A stretch of DNA of 64,000 nt from Rhodospirillaceae bacterium (lineage in GTDB: Bacteria > Pseudomonadota > Alphaproteobacteria > Dongiales > Dongiaceae): positions 186,001 through 250,000 of the forward strand of contig SSEL01000012.1 of NCBI GenBank assembly GCA_008012315.1, written 5' to 3'. The notes under the pieces were generated by a model. It ran no database searches. It was given only the letters and a program-made list of their open reading frames with translations, and was not told the DNA's origin. Positions 3,998-9,527 of this stretch are shown piece after piece (the first letter of the stretch is position 1; each line of letters opens with the position of its first letter). Position numbers and translations under genes: made by a program.

Positions 3998-5140
3998 CTA
4001 GCGCTGGTCGAATTTCATTTCGATGCGACGGTTCTTCTTATAGGCCTCTTCGGTATCGGCCGAATCGAGCGGGTTGAACTCCGCAAAGCCGGCGGCGGCT
4101 AGATGTTCGGCGGGAATGCCACGGCTGATCAGATACTTCACCACGGCGATGGCGCGGGCCGTCGACAATTCCCAGTTTGACGGGAAGCGCGGCGTCGAGA
4201 TTGGCCGCTTATCCGTGAAACCGTCGACCCGCAGCACCCAATGGATCTCCGGCGGAATCTCCTGCGCGATCAGGATGAGCGTGGTGGCGAGGACATCGAG
4301 CTGCTGTTGCCCAGCCGGCGTCACATCGGCGGAGCCGCTGTCGAACAGCACCTCGGACTGGAAGACGAAGCGGTCGCCGACGATCTGGATATCCTGGCGG
4401 TTGCCGAGGACCTCGCGCAGGCGGCCGAAGAATTCGGAGCGGTAGCGGGCGAGTTCCGCCACCTTCGAAGCCAGAGCGGCATTCAGGCGCTTGCCCAGTT
4501 CGGTGATCTGGACATTCTGTTCCTTGCTCTTCTGCTCGGACAGATCCAGCGCCTTCGATATCTCGGCAAGCTGCTGGCGCATGGCGAGGATCTGCTGGTT
4601 CAGCAATTCCACCCGCCTCTGCGCTTCCGTCGTCAGCGTCTCGGTATTGGCGTTGGTGTCGTTCAGCTTCTTCTGCAAGTCGTCGCGCAGGCTCTGCAAG
4701 GCGGCGATATCGGTCATCAGCGCCTGGATCTTCTGCTTATCCGCATCGATCGTCTTATAGGCGTCTTCAAGCTGCTTCGCCTGGTCTTGGGTGACGGCCA
4801 GTTGCTGCTGCGCCTTGTTGCGCTCATTGGTCAGCGCCAGGACCTGATTATGAAGGTCGTCGCGCTCGGCGGTGGATTTGGTCAGCTCGCTGGAAAGCTG
4901 CTGCACCTGCGCTTTCAATTGCGCGGAATTGGATTGTTCCAGCGCCAGCATATCGGCCAGTTCGGCCAGCTGCGAATTCAGCTTGGCGAGGGCCGCATCC
5001 TTCCCGGTCAGGATCTGGCTGAGGAAAAGCTGGCCGATGACGAAGATCATCAGCACGAAGACGATGACCATCAGCAGGTTCGACAGAACGTCGACATAAC
5101 CGGGCCAGACTTCGACGTGGCGACCTCGCCGGCTGCGCAC
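3998..5140 (-). CDS. MotB/OmpA-like peptidoglycan-binding protein with coiled coil
   Basis: The 380-residue protein has one N-terminal membrane segment (about residues 17-42) preceded by an Asp in the motif WPGYVDVLSNLL, like the proton-pathway Asp of MotB/ZorB proteins. A long coiled coil follows (about 50-220), then a C-terminal OmpA domain (about 245-380). That domain keeps the peptidoglycan-binding signature: DGFTD near residue 305 and NWELSTARA near residue 322. It lies 9 nt downstream of the TolQ/ExbB-like channel gene and is surely co-transcribed with it. Together they should form an inner-membrane proton-driven stator whose arm reaches the cell wall. Such pairs are common housekeeping genes in Rhodospirillales, with no assigned role that I know of. 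Confidence 0.85.
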   Translation of the reverse strand: MRSRRGRHVEVWPGYVDVLSNLLMVIVFVLMIFVIGQLFLSQILTGKDAALAKLNSQLAELADMLALEQSNSAQLKAQVQQLSSELTKSTAERDDLHNQVLALTNERNKAQQQLAVTQDQAKQLEDAYKTIDADKQKIQALMTDIAALQSLRDDLQKKLNDTNANTETLTTEAQRRVELLNQQILAMRQQLAEISKALDLSEQKSKEQNVQITELGKRLNAALASKVAELARYRSEFFGRLREVLGNRQDIQIVGDRFVFQSEVLFDSGSADVTPAGQQQLDVLATTLILIAQEIPPEIHWVLRVDGFTDKRPISTPRFPSNWELSTARAIAVVKYLISRGIPAEHLAAAGFAEFNPLDSADTEEAYKKNRRIEMKFDQR

Positions 5141-5149
5141 GGCCGCTCC

Positions 5150-6310
5150 TTAAGTCCGCTGATCCGGGCCGGTCATGCCGGCCGCCGCGGCAATGGTCCG
5201 GGCGAGCACCTTGATCTCGCTACGCAGTTCCTGGACCGATTGATTGCGGCCATGGCTGACCTCCTGCAGCACATGGGAAAGCTGCGCATCGATATTGCGC
5301 AGATGAGCGCGGCTCTGATTATCGAGACCGAGCCCGCCGCCTTGCGCCACATCCACCAGTTTGCCGAGCACTTGGCGGATATCGCTCTGAGCATCGGCGA
5401 GGCGGCTGTGCAATTGCTGTTGATGTCGCAGTTGATCCGTCAGGCCGACCAGTTGGTCGGCCAAGGCATTGAAGCTGTGCGCCGATTGCATCCGGGTGTC
5501 CTCGGCGCGCGCCATGGTGCGCTGCAGGTTCTCCAGGCTTTCGGCGGTCTGTTCCAGCAGGGCCTGGATATAAGCGGGGATCGGTTGGTCGCTTTCGACC
5601 AGGGCGCCGCCGCCGGTCAGGCGCGTCATGCCCGACAGCCAGTCCTCGACGTCGACATAAAAGCGGTTCTGCGCCTGGCCGGCCTGCAAATCGAGATAGC
5701 CCATCAGCAGGGAACCGGAGAGGCCGAAAAGCGAGGCGGAAAATGCCGTCCCCATGCCTTCCAGCGGCCCGTCCAACGCGTTTTTCAGATCGTTGAACAT
5801 CGAGACCGGGTCATTGGCGGTCAGGTTGAGATCGCGGATCGCCGCGGCAACGGCGCTGATCGTGCTGAGCAGGCCCCAGAAGGTACCGAGCAGGCCGAGC
5901 AGGATGAGCAGGGAAATGAAGTAGCGGGAAATCTCGTGGCTTTCGTCCAGCCGGGCCTGTAACCCGTCCAGGACAGAGCGCAGGGAGGTCGCCGACATGT
6001 TCAGCCGGCCGGTCCGTTCGCGAATCATGGCAGCAAGGGGGGCGAGCAAGCGGGGTTGCTCGTGGCTGGTGGCATGACCGCCGCGCACGAAGGCTTCCAG
6101 CCAGGAAATATCGCTGTTCAGCCGGATCACCTGCCAGAACACGAAGACGATACCGATCAGCAGGACGGCGAGGATGCCGCTGTTCAGCGCGGGATTGTGC
6201 CAGAAGGCCTCGACGATCTTACTCCAGAGGAGGAAGATCAGCCCCCCGGCGGCAATCAGACCAACGACCATCCACAGCAATTGACGGGTAGGACGACTCA
6301 TCGATGCCAC
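5150..6310 (-). CDS. MotA/TolQ/ExbB-family proton channel protein
   Basis: This 386-residue protein has membrane segments near residues 10-28, 38-60, 128-152 and 195-212. It includes the conserved LLGLLGTFWGLLSTISA stretch (about 136-152) and GMGTAFSASLFGLSGSLLMG (about 190-209), the hallmarks of the MotA/TolQ/ExbB channel family. The C-terminal 120 residues are predicted to be helical and cytoplasmic, unlike the short tail of TolQ. It is the promoter-proximal gene of a two-gene unit with the MotB/OmpA-like gene, 9 nt apart. A true TolQ is encoded separately at 53649, so this is a second energised complex in the same genome segment. The driven process is unknown. Confidence 0.85.
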   Translation of the reverse strand: MASMSRPTRQLLWMVVGLIAAGGLIFLLWSKIVEAFWHNPALNSGILAVLLIGIVFVFWQVIRLNSDISWLEAFVRGGHATSHEQPRLLAPLAAMIRERTGRLNMSATSLRSVLDGLQARLDESHEISRYFISLLILLGLLGTFWGLLSTISAVAAAIRDLNLTANDPVSMFNDLKNALDGPLEGMGTAFSASLFGLSGSLLMGYLDLQAGQAQNRFYVDVEDWLSGMTRLTGGGALVESDQPIPAYIQALLEQTAESLENLQRTMARAEDTRMQSAHSFNALADQLVGLTDQLRHQQQLHSRLADAQSDIRQVLGKLVDVAQGGGLGLDNQSRAHLRNIDAQLSHVLQEVSHGRNQSVQELRSEIKVLARTIAAAAGMTGPDQRT

Positions 6311-6497
6311 CTAAGGATATCTGACAGGGATTACCCCCAAAAGGATTACTGCCGTCGCGGCGCAGCCCAGCGTTTTACCAGTTCCATCATACGCGGCCGG
6401 CACATCCTCATCAGGCATCAGGCATGGCAGACATCACGATGCCTAAGTAACATCAGCCATTGTGGCAGCAAGTCAAGCCCCGCCGCCGGTTCGGCCC

Positions 6498-8483
6498 TTA
6501 CTGCAGGCTTTCCGCCGGGACGATATCGACCCGGTCGGCGCCGCCGCCTTTCAGCCCAAGGGCCCGGACATCGATCCGCGTAGACCGAACGCCCTTGTGA
6601 TACAGATAGTTCCGGACCTGGATGCCGCGCGACAGCGACATGCGCCGCGCCTTGCTTTCGGTTTCCTCCGTGCCGGACGCGGAAGCCATGACCTGCACGC
6701 GCATATTGGGATCGGCCATCATCTTTTCCGCCAGTTGATCGAGCGCGGCCTGGCTGTCGGCCGGGATATCCGCGCTGTCGGCGGCAAAGGAAATGCTGAG
6801 CTCGACGGCCGTCGGCACCGGCGTCGGGGCCGGCTGTGGCGCCGTCGCGGTCTCGGTCGTCGTCGGCGCGGCGGTTGCTGCCGGAGCTTCCTGCGCGGGC
6901 GCTTCCTGGCTGGCCGTCGCGGTTGCCGGCGATTCGGGAACCGGCGTCTCCGTCGTTTGCGGCGTTGGCGCGGCCGCAGGGGCCGGCGGTTCGGCCGATG
7001 CGGCTGCCGTGGCAGCCGGGGCAGGAGCCGGGGCTGCTGCGGGAGCCGCCGCCGGTGCGGATGCCGGCGCCGGGCTGGCAGCGGCGGTCGCCGACGGCGT
7101 GGTCGGCGTCGTCGTGCCATCCGCATTGGGAATCGGAATGCCGGTGCCTTTCAGCATCTCGGTGGGCGAGGCAACATCGGTCGGGATATCGGTCGGCGGC
7201 GGTGGCGGCGTTTCGCCGACATCCGCCTGGGCGGTCTGTGTCGGCGCATCCGTCGTTGCCGTCGTATCCGTTGCTGTCACATCCGTCGCGGCGGTGCCTG
7301 TTGCCGTGGACTCTGGTGTCGTTTCGGTGCTTGATGCCGCCTCGGTACTCGGTGCTGTCTGGGCGACCTGTGTCGAAGCGGCGCTCACCGCGGCCAGCTG
7401 AACCGGCGCATCGGTCGCAACTGCCGGGCTGCCCGTGGCCACGGGCTCGGCTGCCGCGGCGGTGCCAACCAGGGCGACGCTATTGCCCAGTTGGGTGGTT
7501 TCCGGTTCGCTGCTTGCCGGTTCGGCGCTCGCTTGCGTGGGGGCCGCACCATCGCTGCTGTTTTGGCCGAGCGATTCCTCGGTGCCGGTCGGCGTGGCGC
7601 TGCCGGGCGTTTCCGAGGCGGGCTGTGCCGCGCCGCCAGCATCGCCGGTGCCGGCCGGGGCGGCTTGCGCGACAGCACCGGCAGCATCGGTCTTCGGCGT
7701 ATCGCTTGCTGCGGCCTGCGACTCTTGTTCCGCCGCCGCTGTTTCTGCCGCCTGTGTGGCCGCGGCCGGGACATCCGTTGCAGCCGCTTCTTCGGTCTTG
7801 GGTGTTTCGGCTGCGGCTGCGCTCTCCGTCGCCGACGCCGATGCAGCCGACGTCGATGCGTCGGCGACCGTCGTCACGGCATTGCTTGTCGCTGCATTGC
7901 TCACCGCGGTATCGGCAACTGCCTGGTCCTTCTCGGCGGCCTGCTTCTCGGCGGGCTTGTCGGTGGAAGGCGCGGTCTTGGCCGCTGTTTCAGTGGCTTT
8001 CGGTGCGGCCGCCTTCTTCTTCTTTTTGACGCCCACCGCTTTGTTCTTATGCGTGCCGGGCGCCTTCAAGCGGATGGGTTCATCCTGACCACTGGCTGCC
8101 GCGAGCGTGGAATAGGGGACGAAGCCGGGGGCAACGCCCTGTGTCCCAGCGTAGCCCTGCGTCCCGGCATAACCCGGTGCACTGCCATAGCCGGTTGTCG
8201 CATTCGCGGGGATGAAGGCCGATTTCGGCTTGGCGGCCGGATAAGTGCCGCCTTGAAGCGCAGGCGCGTAGGTACTGCCGGAATAGGCCTGCATCGTCGC
8301 CGTTCCTTGCGGCGCCGTTGCGGGCAGGCTGTCGAGCACATCGTAATTGATGGTGACCTGGCTTGATCCGCTGCCAAAGGCCTGCGCCTGAGACGACGCA
8401 GGCTGCATCATCAGCACCGTGCCGACTGCACCCGTGAGGATAGCTGCCTGCAACCAGAAAAGACGGCCAGACGTCTTCATCAT
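6498..8483 (-). CDS. Large Ala/Thr/Pro-rich secreted protein with degenerate OmpA-like C-terminus
   Basis: With the ATG at 8483 (GGGA about 8 nt upstream) the protein is 661 residues. A TTG codon at 8559-8561 also opens the frame but lacks a good site. It has a signal peptide (MMKTSGRLFWLQAAIL...), a GYxGTQGYAGTQG repeat near residue 105, a Lys-rich KKKKKAAAPK patch near 150, and a low-complexity Ala/Thr/Pro/Glu linker to about residue 560. An OmpA-like fold follows. This C-terminal domain has SKARRMSLSRGIQVRNYL but lacks the usual GHTD aspartate (ASASGTEET instead), so diaminopimelate binding may be lost. It lies upstream of the channel/MotB-like pair on the same strand with a 187-bp gap. 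A periplasm-spanning role is inference. Confidence 0.75.
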   Translation of the reverse strand: MMKTSGRLFWLQAAILTGAVGTVLMMQPASSQAQAFGSGSSQVTINYDVLDSLPATAPQGTATMQAYSGSTYAPALQGGTYPAAKPKSAFIPANATTGYGSAPGYAGTQGYAGTQGVAPGFVPYSTLAAASGQDEPIRLKAPGTHKNKAVGVKKKKKAAAPKATETAAKTAPSTDKPAEKQAAEKDQAVADTAVSNAATSNAVTTVADASTSAASASATESAAAAETPKTEEAAATDVPAAATQAAETAAAEQESQAAASDTPKTDAAGAVAQAAPAGTGDAGGAAQPASETPGSATPTGTEESLGQNSSDGAAPTQASAEPASSEPETTQLGNSVALVGTAAAAEPVATGSPAVATDAPVQLAAVSAASTQVAQTAPSTEAASSTETTPESTATGTAATDVTATDTTATTDAPTQTAQADVGETPPPPPTDIPTDVASPTEMLKGTGIPIPNADGTTTPTTPSATAAASPAPASAPAAAPAAAPAPAPAATAAASAEPPAPAAAPTPQTTETPVPESPATATASQEAPAQEAPAATAAPTTTETATAPQPAPTPVPTAVELSISFAADSADIPADSQAALDQLAEKMMADPNMRVQVMASASGTEETESKARRMSLSRGIQVRNYLYHKGVRSTRIDVRALGLKGGGADRVDIVPAESLQ

Positions 8484-8732: not shown

Positions 8733-9527
8733 TTAGGTGGCGCTGGTTAACAAAGCCTGAAGCGGCGCATGCAGCAGCCCGTTGGTTGCCAGCACGGCGC
8801 CGCTTTCCAGCATCGTCTGGCCACCTTTCAGGTCGCTGATATAACCGCCGGCTTCCTTGACCAGCAACAGGCCGGCGGCCATGTCCCAAGCCAGCAGGTC
8901 TTCTTCCCAGAAGGCATCGAGACGGCCGGCGGCGACATAAGCGAGGTCCAGCGACGCCGCACCCCAGCGGCGCACGCCGGAGGTTTCCCGCATCATCACG
9001 CCAAGTTGCTTGGCGAAGCGGTCCGGATTGCCCTGGCCGCGGAACGGAATACCCGTACCGATCAGCGATTCGTGCAGGTTCTTGCGGCCCGAGACGCGGA
9101 TGCGCCGGTCGTTGAGAAAAGCCCCGCCGCCTTTTTCGGCGCAGAACATCTCATCCTTGATCGGGTCATAAACGACGCCGGCAACGATCTCGCCGTGCTT
9201 TTCCAGCGCGATCGAGATCGCGAAATGCGGCAGCCCGTGCAGGAAATTCGTGGTGCCGTCCAGCGGATCGATGATCCAGCGATGATCAGGATCGCTGCCG
9301 GCCACGACGCCGCCTTCTTCCAGCAGGAAACCGAAAGCCGGGCGGGCTTTCTGCAATTCCTCGCGCAGGATCTTCTCGGCCTTGATATCGGCATTCGAGA
9401 CGAAATCCGCGGGACCCTTCTGGGATACCTGGAGCTGCTCGACTTCGCCGAAATCGCGCTTCAGACCGCGCGCCGCCTTGTCGGCGGCACGGGTCATCAC
9501 ATTCAGGAGTGGGGAACGCGTCACCAT
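8733..9527 (-). CDS. suhB: Inositol-1-monophosphatase family protein (SuhB-like)
   Basis: The 264-residue protein matches the Mg-dependent inositol monophosphatase family in length and motifs. It has LEEGG (metal-binding Glu, about residue 70), WIIDPLDGTTNF (Asp87-Asp90, the catalytic metal motif), and LLAWDMAAGLLLVKEAGG near residue 217 (second metal motif). It hydrolyses inositol phosphates or related sugar phosphates in the cytoplasm; in enterobacteria SuhB also acts in rRNA antitermination. It lies 15 nt downstream of efp on the same strand, an arrangement common in Alphaproteobacteria. The ATG at 9527 is the only good start. The symbol rests on family similarity, since several paralogues exist in such genomes. 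Confidence 0.9.
   Translation of the reverse strand: MVTRSPLLNVMTRAADKAARGLKRDFGEVEQLQVSQKGPADFVSNADIKAEKILREELQKARPAFGFLLEEGGVVAGSDPDHRWIIDPLDGTTNFLHGLPHFAISIALEKHGEIVAGVVYDPIKDEMFCAEKGGGAFLNDRRIRVSGRKNLHESLIGTGIPFRGQGNPDRFAKQLGVMMRETSGVRRWGAASLDLAYVAAGRLDAFWEEDLLAWDMAAGLLLVKEAGGYISDLKGGQTMLESGAVLATNGLLHAPLQALLTSAT

What the first reader, a model, noticed from the sequence alone, without database searches (positions are those of the whole stretch)
3998..8483. A second energised envelope complex next to a repeat-rich OmpA-like protein
A TolQ/ExbB/MotA-type channel and a MotB/OmpA-type stator arm are co-encoded, separately from the true TolQR. An upstream gene on the same strand encodes a secreted protein with about 400 residues of Ala/Thr/Pro linker and a degenerate OmpA-like end. 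The channel-arm pair resembles the ZorAB core of the Zorya anti-phage system, but without ZorC/D/E. This may be an uncharacterised wall-linked machine.
Basis: partly seen in the sequence, partly recalled or inferred. Interest (0 to 1): 0.5.

Follow-up and report, generated by a model that had tools for sequence, protein, structure and literature searches.

The report
Zorya-like cell-wall motor of Alphaproteobacteria
The locus encodes a probable ion-driven motor gripping the cell wall, conserved across much of one large bacterial class and most closely related to an anti-phage motor, beside a frequent but separable third protein whose role is unknown.

Summary
The three genes are real. Channel (5150-6301) and arm (3998-5140) are a tight pair; the pore Thr/Ser are invariant in 94 channels and the TM Asp in 86 arms. 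The arm is NCBI's 'peptidoglycan -binding protein' PRK09039. The channel is not TolQ, ExbB or a flagellar MotA: a pore-region tree puts it with ZorA, as sister to type III (DUF802) ZorA. It is not filed as Zorya: none of nine flanking genes is a Zorya accessory gene, and the pair usually sits in housekeeping synteny (efp-suhB-[third]-channel-arm). The channel matches in 96 of 142 genomes sampled across the class. The third gene belongs to a conserved, unnamed family: signal peptide, N-terminal motif, Ala/Thr/Pro linker, and a Pal/OmpA fold that keeps the peptidoglycan-contact Asp in only 5 of 64 members. It is separable: 33 of 96 channel genomes lack it and 18 genomes have it without the channel, although its rate of evolution covaries with the channel's. 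Best reading: a core wall-anchored 5:2 motor, probably acting in envelope constriction or cell separation. Probable orthologues in Komagataeibacter hansenii ('MotAB') are polar, and overexpression gives long chained cells. The function is inferred, not shown.

The parts
3998..5140 (-). Arm subunit (380 aa): one TM helix with Asp17 (WPGxVD motif), periplasmic coiled coil, C-terminal OmpA-type peptidoglycan-binding domain with canonical TD (D310) and Arg329
   Evidence: NCBIfam NF006543 'peptidoglycan -binding protein' 470.1 bits over cut-off 305; Pfam OmpA 58.2 bits; D17 in 86 of 86, D310 and R329 in 84 of 86 homologues, the other two gapped
5150..6301 (-). Channel subunit (383 aa; listed ORF runs to 6310): probably four TM helices, pore Thr140 and Ser190, predicted helical cytoplasmic tail of about 150 residues
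   Evidence: AlphaFold pLDDT 82.2; closest solved structures TolQ, ExbB, ZorA, MotA; T140 and S190 in 94 of 94 homologues; clade with DUF802 ZorA
6498..8483 (-). Third gene (661 aa): signal peptide, short N-terminal motif, about 540-residue Ala/Thr/Pro-rich linker, OmpA/Pal-fold domain lacking the peptidoglycan-contact Asp
6498..6818 (-). Variant OmpA-like C-terminal domain of the third gene (family motif ARRLSLSRALAVRS.LI..GVRSTRIDVRALG...DRVD)
   Evidence: A3 alignment of 39 rows; model pLDDT 91.8; best PDB match Acinetobacter Pal, TM 0.80, E 2.1e-8
8733..9527 (-). suhB-type inositol monophosphatase: conserved syntenic neighbour, not proposed as a part of the machine
   Evidence: Pfam Inositol_P 218.4 bits; suhB upstream on the same strand in 68 of 94 neighbourhoods, some of the others being cut by contig ends
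9543..10109 (-). efp, elongation factor P: conserved syntenic neighbour
   Evidence: NCBIfam TIGR00038 236 bits; 62 efp frames found in the 94 neighbourhoods

Best explanation
The channel and arm form an ion-driven 5:2 inner-membrane rotary motor of the ZorAB type. Ion flow past Asp17 of the arm and Thr140/Ser190 of the channel turns the arm dimer within the channel pentamer. The coiled coil carries the OmpA domain across the periplasm, where it grips peptidoglycan. The channel's helical cytoplasmic tail is shorter than that of ZorA. This is a core, largely vertically kept machine of Alphaproteobacteria, sister to the type III Zorya motor. Its most likely job is housekeeping: working on, or sensing, the wall and envelope during constriction or cell separation. 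The third protein is an optional periplasmic partner: a secreted, long, flexible protein whose Pal-like domain has probably given up canonical peptidoglycan binding and may dock on another partner. Shown: genes, families, invariant residues, synteny, distribution, tree position. Predicted: fold. Inferred from known relatives: stoichiometry, rotation, ion use, peptidoglycan binding by the arm. Inferred more weakly: the division role and the third protein's role.
For: Tree: clade with DUF802 ZorA at 100/99, and with ZorA1/2 against TolQ/ExbB/Mot at 100/100. Profile comparison with DUF802 97.9% and E 3.3e-13, above ZorA1 (76.5%), TolQ/ExbB (80.4%) and MotA (15.7%). T140 and S190 in 94 of 94, D17 in 86 of 86, canonical TD/Arg in 84 of 86 arms. 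Arm adjacent in 86 of 94 loci, with 70 of 86 gaps at most 30 nt. In 6 of the 8 genomes without an adjacent arm, an arm-family hit of 212 bits or more lies elsewhere. Channel in 96 of 142 class genomes, usually in housekeeping synteny with efp-suhB upstream and, in 47 of 94 loci, a recurring gene of about 620 aa on the other strand downstream. S. meliloti has suhB-channel-arm next to an ABC transporter gene and rpmE. No match in 50,697 phage records and 5 in 72,556 plasmid records, all on replicons of 3.5-4.6 Mb. Probable orthologues in aflagellate K. hansenii: MotA/MotB-GFP polar, overexpression gives elongated chained cells. Third-channel rate covariation 0.57 against 0.63 for channel-arm, and 0.12-0.24 for third versus rpoB, efp and suhB.
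Against: No loss-of-function data. K. hansenii orthology was not tested by sequence here, and overexpression of a channel protein can elongate cells non-specifically. The closest relatives by tree are a system reported to defend against phages. The tree rests on 89 columns with long-branch warnings. Structure comparison does not separate ZorA from TolQ or ExbB (Z 11.4, 12.0, 11.8) and these Z values lie in the range the tool warns about. An unrelated control pair, rpoB-suhB, covaries in rate at 0.52 and rpoB-arm at 0.44, and the third-channel correlation nearly vanishes when per-genome rates are removed (0.11; 0.07 partial). Several genomes of 0.6-1.4 Mb have no channel hit, for example G017, G023, G031, G038 and G055.
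Confidence: 0.55

Rival explanations
1. It is an unrecognised Zorya-type anti-phage system: the motor senses envelope damage by phage at the wall, and an effector encoded elsewhere, or the motor itself, acts.
For: Sister to type III Zorya channels; the arm's best PADLOC hit is ZorB3, E 2e-23; a type III Zorya system reduced plaquing of at least one phage in E. coli (PMC8565338, passages).
Against: No DUF3348 or DUF2894 hit in the own genome (the DUF3348 control rang nowhere). No Zorya accessory gene among nine flanking proteins. Mostly one copy per genome, in housekeeping synteny and broad across the class, unlike patchy defence islands.
Confidence: 0.17
2. It is a second Tol- or Ton-like energiser, with the third protein as its TolA/TonB-like transducer that carries force to an outer-membrane target.
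For: Closest solved structures are of the TolQ/ExbB/ZorA/MotA type; the third protein has a hydrophobic N-terminus, a long Pro-rich linker and a C-terminal alpha/beta domain, reminiscent of TonB; rate covariation.
Against: A site matching a loose AxA-type cleavage pattern follows the N-terminus in 43 of 51 full-length homologues (no shuffled control), so it is probably cleaved. The third is absent from 33 of 96 channel genomes and present without the channel in 18. The channel does not group with TolQ/ExbB.
Confidence: 0.13
3. About the third gene only: it is a mere neighbour, an independent wall- or outer-membrane-associated protein kept beside suhB, with no role in the motor.
For: In 14 of the 18 genomes with the third but no channel it has efp and suhB upstream (in one of them about 4 kb away), the other four being two without suhB in reach and two at contig ends. 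Median gap to the channel is 62.5 nt against 9 nt for channel-arm. Row-centred correlation with the channel only 0.11.
Against: Adjacent in 64 of 94 channel loci, one of them doubtful; rate covariation with channel 0.57 and arm 0.41, but 0.12-0.24 with suhB, rpoB and efp.
Confidence: 0.4

Closest known systems
Zorya type III ZorA/ZorB (DUF802 channel with DUF3348 and DUF2894)
   Same: Closest channel clade and closest arm profile, ZorB3; channel followed by an OmpA arm, as in all 11 fetched DUF802-type loci (DUF802 itself checked by Pfam in two)
   Different: No DUF3348 or DUF2894 found; channel about 380 aa instead of frames of 698-1117 aa; arm longer, with a long coiled coil; housekeeping synteny
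PRK09039 'peptidoglycan -binding protein' (NCBIfam NF006542-NF006546)
   Same: The arm is a member by score, 470.1 bits over a 305 cut-off; the S. meliloti arm too
   Different: The models name only the arm and give no function, no partner and no link to Zorya
Komagataeibacter hansenii 'MotA/MotB' (PMC6570709)
   Same: Adjacent genes in an aflagellate alphaproteobacterium; channel of 348 aa with four predicted TM, one-TM OmpA arm of 321 aa; listed BLAST hits in Rhizobium, Rhodospirillum and Magnetospirillum (abstract and several sections read)
   Different: Named as flagellar stator homologues; orthology with the window not tested by sequence here
TolQR-TolA-Pal
   Same: TolQ is among the closest solved structures of the channel model; the third's domain folds like Pal
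   Different: The genome has its own TolQ; the pair falls in another clade; the arm carries its own OmpA domain; no TolA or TolB seen among the neighbours

Membership tests
Zorya type III | ZorA and ZorB homologues in one operon | tested here: met
   Homologues by partial PADLOC hits (ZorB3 2e-23, ZorA1 2.6e-11, ZorA3 4.8e-10), profile and tree; gap of a few nt between channel and arm
Zorya type III | DUF3348 (ZorF) and DUF2894 (ZorG) genes flanking the pair | tested here: not met
   No hit in the own genome; neighbours are efp, suhB, acetamidase, solute-binding protein, LysR. The DUF3348 search had no ringing control, but the model detects ZorF in L304 and L309
Zorya type I/II | ZorC/ZorD or ZorE next to ZorAB | tested here: not met
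   of nine flanking proteins only an ABC transporter matches PADLOC models at 1e-5, none of them Zorya
Zorya | phage resistance | not testable with these tools
   needs plaque assays
TolQ/ExbB | channel falls in the TolQ/ExbB clade and passes TIGR02796/TIGR02797 | tested here: not met
   Neither model listed for the channel at E up to 1; outside the clade at 100/100
Flagellar MotAB stator | channel falls in the MotA/PomA clade and passes MotA models | tested here: not met
   No MotA model listed for the channel; a separate MotA and a PomA-like protein exist in the genome
PRK09039 peptidoglycan -binding protein (arm) | score above the curated cut-off | tested here: met
   470.1 bits, cut-off 305
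OmpA/Pal domain (third gene) | OmpA-like fold and Pfam gathering score | tested here: met
   34.0 bits, cut-off 27.2; TM 0.80 to Pal
OmpA/Pal domain (third gene) | peptidoglycan-contact Asp of the TD motif and Arg | tested here: not met
   Asp in 5 of 64 homologues (Ser 22, Ala 14, Gly 10; Ser in the window), Arg in 64 of 64; in the arms aligned with them Asp and Arg in 84 of 84. The role of these residues is recalled
5:2 ion-driven motor | TolQ/ExbB/ZorA/MotA fold of the channel | tested here: inconclusive
   The first 23 rows by Z are all TolQ, ExbB or ZorA, MotA follows at 9.6, but Z up to 12.0 is in the range the tool calls possibly only a common arrangement for helical proteins
5:2 ion-driven motor | pentamer:dimer assembly and ion conduction | not testable with these tools
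   Inferred from homology and invariant residues

The most novel reading that the evidence does not exclude
A core alphaproteobacterial cell-wall motor, distinct from Tol-Pal, drives a late step of envelope constriction or pole maturation. It belongs to the same clade as the type III Zorya motor, so that a 'defence' motor and a housekeeping wall motor share one origin. A dedicated periplasmic protein with a non-canonical Pal-like domain works as its coupling partner in most lineages that have it.
Probability: 0.25. Interest if true: 0.8.

Novelty: new variant of a known kind. Interest (0 to 1): 0.5.

Why it matters
If right, a motor family known from phage defence has a large, mostly vertically kept housekeeping branch in Alphaproteobacteria. 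That makes it testable whether Zorya-like motors began as envelope machines that were later armed, or the reverse. It would also give well-studied bacteria (rhizobia, acetic acid bacteria, magnetospirilla) a second wall-gripping motor beside Tol-Pal, and would warn that tools which look for ZorAB-like pairs can mistake it for defence, and that annotations can mistake it for a flagellar stator.

Tried and rejected
Rejected: a flagellar stator (wrong clade, separate MotA and PomA-like proteins present) and ordinary ExbB/TolQ.

TonB-like anchoring of the third protein was considered and marked down because of the AxA-type cleavage sites (loose pattern, no shuffled control). A strict three-gene machine was marked down because of the 2x2 table. 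That table is not corrected for phylogeny; Fisher p is 0.028, 0.004 and 0.001 at 45, 60 and 80 bits.

Led nowhere: profile search of the PDB with the channel alignment returned only coiled-coil noise. Fold comparison cannot separate ZorA from TolQ/ExbB. Paper searches: PRK09039 gave two papers (one searched for the term, which there names a domain of a blue-light receptor table entry; the other not opened); suhB/efp/OmpA, polar growth, DUF802 with OmpA and one search gave none. The S. meliloti Rgs paper, the DalA paper and the Brucella envelope review were searched only for terms and hold nothing I could tie to the pair. The promoter/terminator scan found nothing above chance. The neighbour clustering used stop-to-stop frames, so antisense frames appear among its clusters.

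Mirror-tree: strong raw correlations come from per-genome rates; after row-centring, third-channel is 0.11 (0.07 partial) and channel-arm 0.28 (0.19). In the rate test the unrelated pair rpoB-suhB also reaches 0.52.

A mistake mended: I first read the wrong column as the Asp position (it is the Thr of the T-D motif), with the arms as reference, gives the figures used here.

Dropped rows and labels: rate covariation used 43 of 94 loci, those with all six proteins; the rpoB version used 53 of the 64 loci with pair and third. The pore tree used 60 rows: 21 of the 85 channels of the alpha group (itself cut to 290-420 aa out of 94), 6 further channels, 11 DUF802-type, 2 ZorA1 and 5 ZorA2 rows (labelled by PADLOC model hits only), 9 of 18 TolQ/ExbB-group and 6 of 7 MotA-group rows; of these two groups only some members were scanned by NCBIfam, the others were grouped by me. 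Only 2 of the 11 DUF802-type loci were checked by Pfam. Three channel hits counted in the 96 are weak (G089, G094, G032); one search also gives the table without these and G030 (62, 30, 19, 31). The 64 adjacent thirds include L140, which is doubtful (40 bits).
Full report
What is there. On the minus strand the order is efp, suhB, third gene, channel, arm. The arm is a member of NCBIfam NF006543, 'peptidoglycan -binding protein', at 470.1 bits against a cut-off of 305. The channel is a divergent relative of the MotA/TolQ/ExbB family, below Pfam's cut-off (19.8 against 22.9 bits). The third gene is a secreted protein with a long Ala/Thr/Pro linker and an OmpA-like end. The genome has in addition a TolQ inside the window, an ExbB, a MotA and a PomA-like protein, the last below its cut-off, so this is a fifth system of the superfamily.

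How widespread and how tight. The channel gives a match in 96 of 142 genomes drawn evenly from the class (three of these are weak), and the arm family passes its curated cut-off in 86 of 142. I fetched 94 channel neighbourhoods. The arm is adjacent in 86 of 94, with a median gap of 9 nt and 70 of 86 gaps at most 30 nt. Of the 8 without an adjacent arm, 6 have an arm-family hit of 212 bits or more elsewhere (read); in the other two none was found. The surroundings are mostly housekeeping: suhB upstream in 68 of 94 and 62 efp frames, and in 47 loci a gene of about 620 aa on the opposite strand downstream, which in S. meliloti corresponds in position to an ABC transporter gene followed by rpmE. 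In a sample of 299 genomes of the phylum, 76 match: 59 in the class and 17 outside it, of which 5 are strong and 12 weak. The channel has no match in the phage collection and 5 matches in 72,556 plasmid records, all on replicons of 3.5-4.6 Mb.

What the channel is related to. Of the 12 weak matches outside the class, 11 are long channels (frames of 698-1117 aa) with an OmpA arm next to them. The two that I checked by Pfam carry DUF802 in the channel, DUF3348 upstream and DUF2894 downstream, which is the layout named Zorya type III (PMC8565338 and PMC11890865, passages read). A profile comparison of the window family with the DUF802 channels gives 97.9% and E 3.3e-13, against 76.5% for ZorA1 (two sequences), 80.4% for TolQ/ExbB and 15.7% for MotA. 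A tree of 60 pore regions puts the window family and DUF802 in one clade at 100/99, and these with ZorA1 and ZorA2 opposite TolQ/ExbB/Mot at 100/100. The alignment shows why: the RY/PY-GLLGTF-G and GM-TAF-SS-G-S patterns are shared with ZorA. Limits: 89 columns, long-branch warnings, and structural comparison of the AlphaFold model (pLDDT 82.2) ties TolQ (Z 12.0), ExbB (11.8) and ZorA (11.4), with MotA at 9.6, in a range where the tool warns that helical proteins may match by arrangement alone.

Is the motor likely to be live. Thr140 and Ser190 of the channel are kept in 94 of 94 sequences, Asp17 of the arm in 86 of 86, and the TD aspartate and the arginine of the arm's OmpA domain in 84 of 86, the other two being gapped. 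That these positions match the ion- and peptidoglycan-binding residues of known motors is recalled knowledge. The arm's length runs from 323 to 911 aa apart from three shorter ones, mostly through the coiled coil, and the channel comes in two size classes, near 300 and near 380 aa.

The third gene. Homologues share a signal peptide, an N-terminal motif (36 of 51 full-length sequences against 2.3 expected by shuffling, with a pattern that I drew from the same sequences), a low-complexity linker, and a C-domain with the signature ARRLSLSRALAVRS.LI..GVRSTRIDVRALG...DRVD. The C-domain folds like Pal, but the Asp of the TD motif is kept in only 5 of 64 members (Ser 22, Ala 14, Gly 10), while the Arg is kept in all 64; in the arms aligned with them both are kept in 84 of 84. 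It lies next to the channel in 64 of 94 loci (one of them, L140, is doubtful). Over 142 genomes and at 60 bits, 63 have both, 33 the channel only, 18 the third only and 28 neither. Of the 18, 14 have efp and suhB upstream of it, in one case about 4 kb away, and no channel was found in those stretches. So the unit breaks in both directions. Yet its per-genome divergence tracks that of the channel (0.57) nearly as well as channel tracks arm (0.63), while it tracks rpoB, efp and suhB at only 0.21, 0.24 and 0.12 (43 loci). Against this, the unrelated pair rpoB-suhB reaches 0.52 in the same test, the test is not independent of phylogeny, and pairwise distances after row-centring show little (0.11).

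What it does. The published hint is in Komagataeibacter hansenii, which has no flagellum. [quoted passage not shown] overexpression in E. coli changed nothing in cell shape (PMC6570709: abstract, first part of the results, the localisation section and the discussion read). I could not compare the sequences, but architecture, adjacency and the listed BLAST partners fit this family. I read this as weak support for a role in cell separation or pole maturation, and commit to a wall-anchored 5:2 motor of the envelope at 0.55.

Zorya or not. It works like ZorAB as far as anatomy shows. It is not filed as Zorya: the accessory genes that define types I, II and III were not found, with the caveat that the DUF3348 search had no ringing control and that types I and II were tested among nine neighbours only; phage resistance is untested.

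In print. In the listings (one search showed 30 of 578, one search showed 15 of 42) I saw no paper that treats this alphaproteobacterial pair as a ZorAB relative or describes the third family; the library lacks most subscription papers. The MotAB phylogeny paper (PMC12505986) and the force-transducer paper (PMC12204202) hold no occurrence of 'Alphaproteobacteria' in the term searches (passages).

Noticed in passing
L304 4930-9108 and L309 4490-8602: DUF3348-DUF802-OmpA-DUF2894 clusters, the layout called Zorya type III; 11 genomes of the 299 sampled in the phylum carry a similar long channel with an arm, so whether these are core or defence genes deserves its own check.
   Followed up: partly
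window 6498-8483 and homologues: Mature N-termini of the third family often begin with a V-I-G-G stretch followed by S-V-E-V-N/D-x-x-V-L-D; a possible short binding motif for an outer-membrane partner.
   Followed up: partly
L080, L092, L114, L122, L132, L134, L136, L149: Examples of loci with suhB directly before the channel and no third gene found between, so the third gene has been lost or never gained there.
   Followed up: partly
L232, L193, L188, L234: Records titled Mesoflavibacter, Gammaproteobacteria, Rhodanobacteraceae and Betaproteobacteria carry copies of the pair that look alphaproteobacterial; probably mislabelled or contaminated genome bins.
   Followed up: no
L196 and L197: The same contig matches in both orientations with identical locus coordinates, which suggests an inverted duplication made by assembly.
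   Followed up: no
L318: A divergent channel (573-aa frame) with the arm gene before it and efp downstream, in a family of genomes whose other listed members had no channel match.
   Followed up: no
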